From positions 1-64,000 of the forward strand of contig JAHCBA010000017.1 of NCBI GenBank assembly GCA_019634625.1: 64,000 nucleotides of DNA, given 5' to 3'. The notes below the pieces were generated by a model. The model made no database searches. It had not been told where the DNA came from and saw nothing but the letters and a program-made list of their open reading frames with translations. The position numbers and the translations under genes were made by a program. Position 1 is the first letter of the stretch; every line of letters begins with the position of its first letter. Positions 1,646 to 60,309 of the stretch are shown in pieces. Origin of the DNA: Verrucomicrobiia bacterium. GTDB taxonomy: Bacteria; Verrucomicrobiota; Verrucomicrobiia; Limisphaerales; CAIMTB01.

Positions 1646-1672
1646 AGGTGGAGGGTGGATTTGGGTGGGGGG

Positions 1673-2123
1673 GACACGCTGAAGCGTGGACACCGAACGA
1701 TTGGGGGGCGGCGAGGCGTTGGGGGGGATGTTGCGCGTTGGGTCCGGGTTGGGCGTTCTGGCTTATCGTACTCGTGATCGACGGGGGTGGATTTCGATGG
1801 TGCTGCTGCGTTTTGGTTGGGTTCCCGGGGTTCGAGGACGAGTCCCGAGGAGGGGGATGGCTTGGGCGGGTTGCAGGAACGTTGGTCTGCCGGATAGGCC
1901 CTTCGGGGGGGGTGAGCTGAACACGTCTTCGGGTGGGCGAGCGGCGTGAAGCGGGACCGTCGAGCCTGCTGGCCCCGGAGGGATGGGTTCTGCGACCCTT
2001 GGCGGGGTCGTGAGCGGGGTGGGACTTCTGCCCGGGGGTCGAACCCGCGGAGCCGGGTTCGACCCCCGGCTAATCTCTGGAAACCCTCCGGGTTTCTTGC
2101 AGCAAGCCTCGTACGCGTCTTCG
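1673..2123. repeat. Family B long repeat, copy 1
   Basis: About 450 bp that recurs with only scattered differences at 2288-2739, about 615 bp further on. It opens with a small hairpin (CACGCTGAAGCGTG, 1675-1688), includes a second one (CGACCCC-TGGC-GGGGTCG near 1992) and ends with a perfect 16 bp stem-loop at 2032-2069. It lies directly after the integrase gene and holds no convincing protein gene. The 165 bp between the two copies (2124-2287) also has a relative near 11.8 kb. Confidence 0.88.
2032..2069. other. Perfect 16 bp stem-loop inside family B
   Basis: Left arm CCGGGGGTCGAACCCG, six-base loop, right arm CGGGTTCGACCCCCGG: a fully paired 16 bp inverted repeat. The second copy at about 2645-2683 has one extra G in the left arm. 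The right half alone resembles a tRNA T-arm, but no tRNA body surrounds it. It could be a terminator-like or recombination-related hairpin. Its function is unknown. Confidence 0.8.
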
Positions 2124-2287
2124 TGAGCGAAATCGCCCCGACTAGTTCGCATGCGAAATGGGAGGTCCGATCAACATCAAGATCGAACCCATCGGGCCAG
2201 CCTTGAGGCGATGCTCGATGCGGTGTGTCTGCGGGTTCGAGTACGGTGGGATGGGGAAGGGGGAGGGTGGTTTTGGGTGCCGGGGGG

Positions 2288-8032: not shown

Positions 8033-8114
8033 GGCAGGACGGACGCGATGGGACAGCGAAGCAGAAGGGAGCGGGGTAGGACAAGCCGCGGGCGGGGCGA
8101 AGCGGTTGAAGCAG

Positions 8115-8270
8115 TGCATCCCGGAGTTATGGGGAGCGGTGCGAACTTCGCCAAACGGCGCTTCGGAGGGCCGGGTTCCACGAGGCCGCAAGGGAGTGGA
8201 GCGATGGGACGAGGACTCGCGGAGCTCGTCCCTCCGATTCGTCGCCTCCTCACCCACAACTCCGGGATGC
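8115..8270. repeat. Family A MITE-like element, copy 1
   Basis: A 156 bp element with terminal inverted repeats (GCATCCCGGAGTTATGGG at the left, CCCACAACTCCGGGATGC at the right, one mismatch) and an internal TCGGAGGG/CCCTCCGA pair, so most of it can fold on itself. It sits in the 361 bp between the divergent larA and TIM-barrel genes, which otherwise contain nothing I recognise. Relatives are at about 12.1, 20.4, 30.7, 59.7 and 60.0-60.2 kb. Confidence 0.85.
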
Positions 8271-8393
8271 GCTCCCGCGGCCGTTCGGGGGACGGCTTCC
8301 GTTGACTTCGTGCGGCGGGGGCAGTAACCAAGCGGCTCACCACAGGCACGACGCACGGTGCGGCGCGCCATCCATGTCCACTTGAATGCTCCC

Positions 8394-12055: not shown

Positions 12056-12208
12056 TCCCCAAGTTGTCGGTAACGAGCCAGGGAATCGGAGGGACGAGCT
12101 GCGCGAGTCCACAACCGAACGCTCCACACCGTTGCGGCCTCGTGGAACCCGGCCCTCCGAGGCCATGCTTCGCGAAGTTCGCGCCTTTACCTACAAGTCC
12201 GGGATGCA
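12056..12208. repeat. Family A MITE-like element, copy 2 (inverted)
   Basis: Opposite orientation to copy 1. The conserved core (GAATCGGAGGGACGAGCT through GGAACCCGGCCCTCCGAG) and the end AGTCCGGGATGCA are clear; the other end has decayed. It lies about 90 bp before the yebC start. Confidence 0.75.
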
Positions 12209-12298
12209 CGGGGAGCAACCGACATGGAGCCAGCTGTGCCATCACTTCGCTATTTCTCTTTCGCGGTTTCCGGGGGTGCCGGGTAGGCTGCCACTGTC

Positions 12299-13047: not shown

Positions 13048-15201
13048 ATGCCTGACCCGACCCGCGGCGGTTACGATGCGTTCCTGGCATTCGACCGGGC
13101 GGACCAGGCGGTGGTGGAATCCGTGCGGAACTGGCTGACGGAGCCGGGCGGGCTGGGGGTATTTCTGGACTACGGGGAACTGGACCCGGGGGCGTTGCGG
13201 CGTGGGGATCGGGCGGCGGCGCTGCGGCGGAGCCGGTGTCTGGTGGTGATGGTGGGACCGCAGAGCGCGGCGCGATGGGGTGGGGAGACGGCGCAGGCGT
13301 TCATGGCGGCGGGGATGCGGGAGAACGAGCTGACATTGATTCCGGTGATCCTGCCGGGGGTGACAGCGGAACAGCAGCAGGGGCTGCCGATGTCCTTCCA
13401 GAGGCGGCTATGGATCCCGTTTCCCCGGGATGCCCGGGACGTTCCGGCCTTGCAGGCTTTGGCGGCGGCGATCCGGAAGGCGGGGGATGTGACGGGGGGA
13501 GCACCGGACAGCGTTCCGGGGGTGCTGGACGCGGCGGCGTGTCCGTACCGGGGATTGCGAGGGTACCGGGAGGAGGACGCCTACCGGTTTTTTGGGCGGG
13601 AACATGCGGTGCAGCGGGTGCTGCTGCGCCTGAGCGGGTCGTCGGTGGTGACGCTGGCGGGGCCGGCGCGGGTGGGGAAGACGTCGGTGGTGCGGGCGGG
13701 GGTTCTGCCGGAGTTGCGGGCGCAGGGTTGGGCAACGGAGGTCATGACGCCCGGGCCGGATCCTCTCGACCGGCTGGCGCGGGTGTTGTGGGGGCTGCAG
13801 CGGGAGAACCTGCGTTGGCGCATGGGGGAGATCCGGGAGCATCTGCGGGAGGCGGGACTGCCGATTCTGGGGGTGTTGGCGGACCAGATTCTGGACGATC
13901 TGCGGAAGGACCGGTTGTTGCTGGTGATCGACCAGTTCGAGGAGTTGTTCGTGGCCACGCGGGACGACGGGGTGCGCCGCCGGTTCATGGCACTGCTGGC
14001 GGCGGCGGCGGGAACGCCGGGTGGCCGGGTGCGGATGCTGGTGGTCCCGCGAACGGCGGCCCTGGCGGCGTGTGCGGCGGACACGGAGTGGAACCGCTGG
14101 ATCACCGGGGATCTGCTGCAGCTCGGGGTGTTGAGCGCGCGGGATGCGCGTCGGGCGATCGAGGGACCGGCGCACCAGGTCGGCCTGGAGATGGAGGAGG
14201 GCCTGACGGATCGGATTCTGGAGGACTGGCGGATGGAGGGGATGGAGGTGGCCTTGCTGGGGCAATGCATGGAGGAACTCTACCGGCGCCGGGAGGATCG
14301 GGGCGGCCGCCTGGCCCTGACACTGGAGGCGTACCGGGCGATGGGGAGCCTTGGGGGGGCGGTGGCGACGCGGGGAGAGGAGGAGTACCGGCGCATCGAG
14401 TCGCGATTCGGCGCGGACGGGACGAGGCTGCTGCGGCAGTTGCTGGCGGTGCATTTTGTCCGGCCGGAGCCGTTGATGGAGGAGTTGTGCCGGCCGGTGC
14501 TGGAGTCGGAACTGGAACAACTGGGCGCGGATCGGAGCCTGCTGGAGGGGGTCCTGGAGGAGTGGGAGGAGGCGCGGCTGTTGCTGGCCACGCGGTTTCC
14601 GGCGCTGGCTTCGGACCGGACCAGGGGGAGGGAAGGCGGCGACGAGGAGGGGGAGGGGCCGGCGTGCAACCGGCTTCAGGTGGCGCACGAGATCTGGGTG
14701 ACACGATGGCCGCGGCTGAAGGGCTGGCTGGAAGAGGATCGCGATGACGCACGGGCGATGGAGGCGCTGCGTCGGGAGGAGGTGGCGTGGCGGGAGGCGG
14801 GATGTCCGGGGGACCGATTGCCGGCGGGGGGACGCCTGCTGGACCTGGAGGAATTGTTGGTGCGGCACGCGGCGGTGGTGCCGCCTGGGGTGCGGGAGTA
14901 TGTGGCGGCGGCGGTGGGTGTCCGCGAGGAGGCCGAACGCGGGCTGGTGGGAAATCTGCGGAGGGAGTTGCGGGAGGCGACCGCGCGGGCGGAGGGGCTG
15001 GAGTCGGATTTGCGGGAGGCGGAGGGCCGGTTGTCGGAGGCCACGACGCGACGGAAAGAGGCGGAGGATCGGTTTCGCGAACAGGCGAAGCGATGGGAGG
15101 AGGCGGAGGCAAGCCTGGGGCGGTGGCGGTTGGCGTGCCTGCTTCTGGGGGCGGTGGGGGTGGGCTTGTGGTTGGCGTGGCGCGGCGGGTATTTCGGGTA
15201 G
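13048..15201 (+). CDS. TIR-nSTAND protein with C-terminal coiled coil and membrane anchor
   Basis: 717 aa. Residues 8-140 form a TIR domain (YDAFLAFDRAD, GLGVFLDYGEL, LVVMVGPQSAARW). Glu80, in RWGGE, sits where TIR NAD-hydrolases keep their catalytic glutamate. Residues 165-470 are an nSTAND NTPase: signature PYRGLRGYREEDAYRFFGRE, Walker A GPARVGKTS (205-213) and Walker B LLLVIDQFEE. A bridging region follows (HEIWVTRWPRLKGWLEED), then a coiled coil (about 625-685) and one membrane span (about 690-711) nearly at the C-terminus. Related proteins usually continue into a WD40 sensor propeller; none is present. Such TIR-STAND proteins act in anti-phage defence or signalling in known cases. That role is inference here. 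Confidence 0.85.
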   Translation: MPDPTRGGYDAFLAFDRADQAVVESVRNWLTEPGGLGVFLDYGELDPGALRRGDRAAALRRSRCLVVMVGPQSAARWGGETAQAFMAAGMRENELTLIPVILPGVTAEQQQGLPMSFQRRLWIPFPRDARDVPALQALAAAIRKAGDVTGGAPDSVPGVLDAAACPYRGLRGYREEDAYRFFGREHAVQRVLLRLSGSSVVTLAGPARVGKTSVVRAGVLPELRAQGWATEVMTPGPDPLDRLARVLWGLQRENLRWRMGEIREHLREAGLPILGVLADQILDDLRKDRLLLVIDQFEELFVATRDDGVRRRFMALLAAAAGTPGGRVRMLVVPRTAALAACAADTEWNRWITGDLLQLGVLSARDARRAIEGPAHQVGLEMEEGLTDRILEDWRMEGMEVALLGQCMEELYRRREDRGGRLALTLEAYRAMGSLGGAVATRGEEEYRRIESRFGADGTRLLRQLLAVHFVRPEPLMEELCRPVLESELEQLGADRSLLEGVLEEWEEARLLLATRFPALASDRTRGREGGDEEGEGPACNRLQVAHEIWVTRWPRLKGWLEEDRDDARAMEALRREEVAWREAGCPGDRLPAGGRLLDLEELLVRHAAVVPPGVREYVAAAVGVREEAERGLVGNLRRELREATARAEGLESDLREAEGRLSEATTRRKEAEDRFREQAKRWEEAEASLGRWRLACLLLGAVGVGLWLAWRGGYFG

Positions 15202-20349: not shown

Positions 20350-20397
20350 GCGCGAAGTTCAAGGGGTTGGGGCGGGTCGCGTCAAGAGAGGGCGGGA

Positions 20398-20529
20398 GAG
20401 GGGGGTGCCTCGCGAAGCGTGGCTTCGGAGGGCCGGGTTCCAGGAGGCCGCAAGGGTGTGGGGCGTTGGGTTGCGGACTCGCGGAGCTCGTCCCTCCGAT
20501 TCGTTGCCTCCTCACAAACAGCGCCTGGG
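20398..20529. repeat. Family A MITE-like element, copy 3
   Basis: Same orientation as copy 1. The core from GGCTTCGGAGGGCCGGGTTCC to GTCCCTCCGATTCGTTGCC is well kept, but both terminal inverted repeats have decayed. It lies between two minus-strand genes. Confidence 0.75.
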
Positions 20530-20534
20530 AGCGC

Positions 20535-30454: not shown

Positions 30455-30908
30455 CGGATCGGGAACGGCGATTGGGAGGAGTTTGGGCCTGTCAGGGGCT
30501 TATCCTTGGGATTACTGGGCGGCAGCCAAACCCAACTCAGAAAGGGGCCACCAACCGAACCTTGCCATGATCGGCCCAGAAATTGGCTTGAGAATTCGGA
30601 GGCGGCCCGGGGGTATGGGGTGGGATGCAGGGGTGGAATGACGCCTGGCGGATTCGCGGGGGTGGTGGGGGAGGTGTGAGTTTCGCGGAGCGTGGTCTCG
30701 ATGGCGGGGTACGGTGAGGCCGCAAGGGTGGGGTGCTTTGGGGGTTAGGGACTCGCGGAGCTCGTCCCTCCGAGTCGCTGGCTTCCCGCCCAGACCGCCG
30801 GGATGCACCGAATGAAGCCAAGATACTTCTCTGACTTCTTGACGTTGGGGCGAAGGGTTGTCATGGTGCCCGACCTTTTCGGTGTTCATTCAGTCCATTA
30901 CGTCCGGT
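30455..30908. promoter_or_regulatory. Divergent intergenic region, cytochrome cluster / rpoD
   Basis: 454 bp between divergent starts. The part nearest the cytochrome gene (30455 to about 30670) is unique and holds no ORF I believe. A family A element fills about 30676-30807. About 100 bp then remain before rpoD. I could not pick convincing -35/-10 boxes by eye. Confidence 0.5.
30676..30807. repeat. Family A MITE-like element, copy 4
   Basis: Same orientation as copy 1; the core GGACTCGCGGAGCTCGTCCC and the end CCGGGATGCACCGAAT are kept. The end plus the following CACCGAAT is identical to copy 6. It lies about 100 bp before the rpoD start. Confidence 0.75.
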
Positions 30909-59878: not shown

Positions 59879-59986
59879 GATCGGGAACGGGCGACGCCAG
59901 AAAGTGGCGGGCGTCCCGTCGGGGAAAGTGTCTCGCAAGGGCGGGGGTCTTGGCAAGCCGCGGGTACGGGCCCAAACCGGCGTCCG

Positions 59987-60240
59987 TGCATCCCGGAGTC
60001 GTGGGGAGAGGTGCGAACGTCGCGAAGCGTTGCCTCGGAGGGCAGGGTTCCACGAGGCCGCAGCGGAGTGGAGCGCTGGGTTGTGGACTCGCGGAGCTCG
60101 TCCCTCCGAAGGGTGGAACGGGGTGGTGACGTCGGAGGGCAGGGTTCCACGAGGCCGCAAGGGGGTGGTGCTTTGGGTTGTGGACTCGCGGAGCTCGTCC
60201 CTCCGATTGGCTGCCTCCTCACCCACAACTCCGGGATGCA
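59987..60240. repeat. Family A element, copy 6 (compound)
   Basis: 254 bp. Full terminal inverted repeats (TGCATCCCGGAGTCGTGGGG, CCCACAACTCCGGGATGCA) enclose two copies of the internal core, each running from GGAGGGCAGGGTTCCACGAG to GGAGCTCGTCCCTCCGA. It looks like one element that duplicated its core or inserted into itself. Confidence 0.85.
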
Positions 60241-60309
60241 CCGAATCGTCCTGATCCCATCGCTCCGGTGCGGGTGGACGGACGGCGCGGCGGCAGGGTA
60301 GGGTTCGGC

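What the first reader, a model, noticed from the sequence alone, without database searches (positions are those of the whole stretch)
13048..15201. TIR-nSTAND protein that stops at the membrane: the WD40 sensor is missing
A TIR domain with the probable catalytic Glu80, the PYRGLRGY nSTAND signature, Walker A and B, a coiled coil and then one membrane span at the extreme C-terminus. Relatives usually continue past the span into WD40 repeats. A membrane-tethered NAD-cleaving switch without its own sensor would need a partner or would sense the envelope itself.
Basis: partly seen in the sequence, partly recalled or inferred. Interest (0 to 1): 0.6.

Follow-up and report, generated by a model that had tools for sequence, protein, structure and literature searches.

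The report
Sensorless tail-anchored TIR-STAND protein
A bacterial gene encodes an immune-switch-like protein (TIR domain plus STAND ATPase) that ends at its membrane anchor and lacks the usual sensor part, but its TIR domain has also lost the standard position of the NAD-cutting residue, so it is probably not the working NAD-destroying switch that was first suggested.

Summary
Window 13048-15201 (+) encodes 717 aa: TIR_2, nSTAND1, a long C-terminal helix and one membrane span about five residues from the end. No WD40 sits in the 64-kb window; a convergent gene and a hairpin follow within 120 bp. Among 73 complete, non-redundant relatives with the span, none ends fewer than 46 residues after it, so the ending is rare. 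Relatives carry WD40, but also HEAT or GAF-SpoIIE.

The NADase reading is weakened. TIR NADases use the Glu of WxxxE. Here the motif is W77-G-G-E80-T81: the catalytic column holds Thr, while 13 of 13 aligned TIR-nSTAND1 relatives have Glu. Ala14 replaces a Ser needed in AbTir, and Arg51 an invariant Trp. The nSTAND1 core deviates at 28 of 83 conserved columns (at most 11 in any other protein), though the P-loop, Walker B and His547 remain. Codon composition is normal and the frame is intact; simulated drift to comparable change always gave stops.

Most likely this is a strongly derived, single-genome TIR-nSTAND1 protein, tail-anchored and sensorless, whose TIR no longer cleaves NAD by the standard mechanism, perhaps a membrane scaffold. 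New variant of a known kind.

The parts
13048..15201 (+). TIR-nSTAND1-long helix-TM gene, 717 aa; Shine-Dalgarno-like GAAGGGA upstream of the ATG, 26 bp after yebC
   Evidence: ORF and translation; Pfam; codon-position GC 0.766/0.507/0.859, like the neighbours
13081..13434 (+). TIR domain (residues 12-129); W77, E80 and T81 lie at 13276-13278, 13285-13287 and 13288-13290
   Evidence: TIR_2 44.6 bits; AF2 model of residues 1-152, pLDDT 83, VIA Z 12-14 to solved TIR domains; alignment A3
13543..14802 (+). nSTAND1 P-loop NTPase with winged-helix region (residues 166-585): Walker A 205-212, Walker B 290-299, His547
   Evidence: PF20703 252.5 bits; 28 of 83 conserved columns deviate; AF2 model, Z about 14-17 to ORC/Cdc6, Apaf-1, NRC1 and other STAND/AAA folds
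14884..15129 (+). long alpha-helix, probable coiled coil (residues 613-694)
   Evidence: AF2 model: one helix 613-712
15130..15183 (+). C-terminal membrane span, about residues 695-712 (RLACLLLGAVGVGLWLAW), then the tail RGGYFG
   Evidence: Kyte-Doolittle scan, peak 1.62 over 19 aa, the only segment above 1.6 after the winged helix
15270..15295 (-). 11-pair hairpin between the convergent 3' ends; terminator-like on the - strand
   Evidence: three terminator-like sites were found against 2.5 expected by chance, so weak on its own

Best explanation
This is a strongly derived, accessory member of the TIR-nSTAND1 (NLR-like) proteins. It has no C-terminal sensor: after the winged-helix region a long helix leads into one C-terminal span, so the protein is tail-anchored with TIR and NTPase in the cytoplasm (topology inferred). 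The P-loop and Walker B are retained, so NTP-dependent clustering at the membrane is plausible (inferred). The TIR fold is retained, but Thr sits at the catalytic-Glu column, so it most likely does not cleave NAD by the standard mechanism and acts by TIR-TIR or scaffold contacts (inferred). The reading frame has been kept under selection (supported by codon composition and absence of stops).
For: Domains. No WD40 nearby. Ends about 5 aa after the span; 73 complete relatives have at least 46 aa after it. Catalytic column: T81 here, Glu in 13/13; S14 to Ala and W51 to Arg, 13/13 conserved in the others. The A3 profile aligns that Glu with Glu of AbTIR WTNYEL. [quoted passage not shown] The same genome holds another TIR protein with intact WPNYE. 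28/83 nSTAND1 columns are changed against at most 11 elsewhere. GC3 is 0.859 as in neighbours. Neutral simulation to 20-29% residue change gave 5-11 stops on average and never zero in 300 runs. No orthologue in 320 genomes of the order; no match near yebC in congeners.
Against: No experiment. A one-residue deletion between W77 and the helix could leave E80 in the pocket: AF2 starts the helix at E80 after GG, and model coordinates could not be inspected. 'Scaffold' is inferred from what is lost, not from a positive signal. The gene is known from one genome, so selection could not be measured with orthologues. The conserved-column comparison is biased by pattern-based retrieval around Walker A and B.
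Confidence: 0.5

Rival explanations
1. One reading: a membrane-tethered, active TIR NADase switch in which Glu80 is catalytic (shifted by one residue) and a partner protein or the membrane itself supplies the signal.
For: TIR fold is intact (Z 12-14); W77, D41 and G48 are conserved; two glycines precede E80 and the predicted helix starts at E80, so a loop deletion might keep it in place; P-loop intact.
Against: WxxE instead of WxxxE, Thr at the Glu column, Ser14 and Trp51 lost together; AbTir S140A and TcpC S176 mutants are inactive (PMC11374754); no partner-like gene next to it.
Confidence: 0.22
2. A decaying remnant: an acquired TIR-nSTAND gene that lost its sensor by a truncating event and is now drifting.
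For: Loss of the C-terminal module, 28 of 83 conserved columns changed, low profile scores compared with relatives (nSTAND1 252 against 396-415 bits, TIR 45 against 75-96), sporadic occurrence.
Against: 717 intact codons, GC3 as in neighbours in all three parts, no stops where drift simulation expects 5-11, no sensor debris downstream, helix and span still form one coherent end.
Confidence: 0.2
3. A sequencing or assembly error hides the true C-terminus.
For: Draft genome in 88 contigs.
Against: No WD40 or other remnant in any frame before the convergent PA14 gene, whose stop lies 118 bp downstream; the gene is far inside the contig.
Confidence: 0.05

Closest known systems
TIR-nSTAND1-TM-WD40/HEAT/GAF-SpoIIE proteins of Chloroflexota, Planctomycetes, Nitrospira and Caballeronia (L034, L035, L039, L051, L059, L010, L033)
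   Same: TIR_2 followed by nSTAND1 with PYRGL...FFGRE, Walker A/B, AHE, then a helix and a span
   Different: They continue 46 to about 1000 aa beyond the span, mostly into sensor-like domains; they have SH/SY, W and WxxxE in the TIR; best identity to the query is about 30%
AbTir and other bacterial TIR NADases
   Same: TIR fold, W77 (W204), D41 (D167)
   Different: Glu208 position is Thr81 and Ser140 position is Ala14 in the window protein
Plant TIR-NLRs, Apaf-1, bacterial Avs STAND proteins
   Same: N-terminal effector plus STAND NTPase core (Foldseek and VIA matches)
   Different: C-terminal LRR, WD40 or TPR sensor is absent here; a membrane tail is present

Membership tests
nSTAND1 (PF20703) STAND NTPases | Profile score over the curated cut-off, with P-loop and Walker B | tested here: met
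   252.5 bits against 27.1; G205, G210, K211, D295, E298, E299, R335 and H547 conserved
TIR_2 (PF13676) | Profile score over the cut-off and TIR fold | tested here: met
   44.6 bits against 28; model Z 12-14 to solved TIRs
TIR NADases | Catalytic Glu in the WxxxE motif | tested here: not met
   W77-G-G-E80-T81 in the window protein; 13/13 relatives have Glu at the T81 column; AbTir E208 aligns there
TIR NADases | NAD cleavage | not testable with these tools
   needs an assay
TIR-STAND-WD40 receptors | C-terminal WD40 sensor | tested here: not met
   ORF ends about 5 aa after the span; no WD40 in the window
Catalogued anti-phage systems (PADLOC) | Match to a system model and defence neighbourhood | tested here: not met
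   Only a chance-level match, 12.8 bits; the tested neighbours are YebC, a CehA-type hydrolase, a PA14 protein, MnmA and a TIM-barrel protein
Tail-anchored membrane proteins | Single span at the extreme C-terminus | tested here: inconclusive
   Hydropathy supports a span with a tail of about 5 aa; insertion and orientation untested

The most novel reading that the evidence does not exclude
A bacterial NLR-like protein that gave up both its sensor and its enzymatic TIR activity and became a tail-anchored scaffold or decoy, a bacterial counterpart of catalytically dead TIR adaptors.
Probability: 0.25. Interest if true: 0.6.

Novelty: new variant of a known kind. Interest (0 to 1): 0.33.

Why it matters
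STAND receptors are thought to be switched on through C-terminal repeats. A maintained protein that lacks them and has a non-canonical TIR would show that the NTPase core can be reused at the membrane for something other than sensing plus NAD destruction. It also shows that a Glu near the WxxxE motif must be checked for register before a TIR is called an NADase.

Tried and rejected
WD40 remnant or frameshift downstream: searched with C-terminal parts of relatives and with PF00400; none in place. Synteny: the CehA-yebC pair is kept in two congeners, but no TIR-nSTAND match lies near yebC in any of four congeners; in two genomes a subtilisin-like gene follows. Direct phmmer of the TIR against PDB found no TIR, so the profile was used. 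The TIR model's top VIA rows include plant RRS1 as well as NADases SARM1 and BtTir, with differences of about 1 in Z, so structure ranking does not tell active from inactive.

Full report
What is there. The ORF at 13048-15201 (+) encodes 717 aa. Pfam finds TIR_2 at residues 12-129 and nSTAND1 at 166-585, both over their cut-offs. AF2 with 68 sequences gives mean pLDDT 86 and a single helix 613-712. The last hydrophobic segment, LACLLLGAVGVGLWLAW, ends about five residues before the stop. The gene starts 26 bp after yebC and ends 118 bp before the stop of a convergent PA14-domain gene; an 11-pair hairpin lies between.

Is the missing sensor real? Yes. No WD40 match lies in the window, although the genome has 116 WD40 matches elsewhere. 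C-terminal parts of relatives find nothing on the + strand downstream. In 73 non-redundant relatives with a stop in hand and a span after the winged helix, the shortest tail after the span is 46 aa, and most are about 700. What follows the span in TIR-nSTAND1 relatives is WD40 (L034, L059; L033 by its repeats), HEAT (L010), GAF plus SpoIIE (L039), or nothing recognised (L035).

Is the TIR an NADase? In bacterial TIR NADases activity mostly depends on the Glu of the C-helix WxxxE motif, and in AbTir S140A, D167A and E208 mutations inhibit (PMC11374754). In alignment A3, W77 aligns with the Trp of all 13 relatives, and the Glu column (W+4) is Glu in 13/13 and Thr81 in the window protein. E80 sits at W+3, where relatives have E, R, A or Q. 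Position 14 is Ser in 13/13 and Ala here; position 51 is Trp in 13/13 and Arg here. The family profile puts the same Glu column on the E of AbTIR's WTNYEL. Another TIR protein of the same genome has the canonical WPNYE. The fold itself is kept. A compensating loop deletion that leaves E80 near the pocket is not excluded: the predicted helix begins at E80 after Gly78-Gly79.

Is the NTPase intact? P-loop, Walker B, Arg335 and His547 are conserved, but the RADF, PGALPLL and RRR stretches are changed; in all, 28 of 83 leave-one-out conserved columns deviate, against a median of 4 and a maximum of 11 in the other 67 sequences. Retrieval by Walker A/B patterns inflates conservation around those motifs, but many deviations (336-338, 399-402, 469-483, 549-550) lie outside them.

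Decay or derived? Codon-position GC (0.766/0.507/0.859) is like that of the neighbours, in the TIR, nSTAND and helix-span parts alike. Simulated unconstrained substitution of this very sequence to 20-29% residue change produced 5-11 stops on average and never zero in 300 runs; at 10% change zero stops occurred in 6-22 of 300 runs. The target of 29% is my rough estimate from the excess of conserved-column changes. With no stop and no frameshift, long neutral drift is unlikely; recent loss of constraint cannot be excluded.

Distribution. No orthologue in 320 genomes of the order or in an even sample of 387 of the phylum; the best TIR-nSTAND1 match is 30% identical. In four congeners yebC is present but the gene is not found near it, as far as the contigs allow; other genes, for example a subtilisin-like one, follow. 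The tested neighbours are housekeeping or secreted proteins, not a defence island, and PADLOC gives no match.

Verdict. The anatomy reported is right and the missing sensor is genuine. The NADase claim is probably wrong or at least unproven. Best reading: a derived, tail-anchored, sensorless TIR-nSTAND1 protein with a likely non-catalytic TIR, perhaps a membrane scaffold or regulator (about 0.5). Shown: domains, ending, altered motifs, intact frame. Inferred: topology, clustering, scaffold role, defence context.

Noticed in passing
window 8114-8272, 12056-12211 (inverted), 20394-20534, 30742-30813 (partial), 59984-60246: Interspersed repeat family of about 140-150 nt, copies about 70-88% alike and in both orientations; one copy lies between the CehA-type gene and yebC; no Rfam match.
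   Followed up: partly
window 1667-2125 and 2282-2739: Direct duplication of about 458 nt, 98% identical, period about 614.
   Followed up: no
L001 (G000:C18:52445-52723): Second TIR protein in the same genome, AbTir-like, with intact FISHAS and WPNYE motifs.
   Followed up: partly
L039:3504-6602: TIR-nSTAND1 protein of a Pirellulaceae MAG that ends in GAF and SpoIIE phosphatase domains instead of WD40 repeats.
   Followed up: no
L010:1480-4860: TIR-nSTAND1 protein of the same order whose region after the span is HEAT repeats.
   Followed up: no
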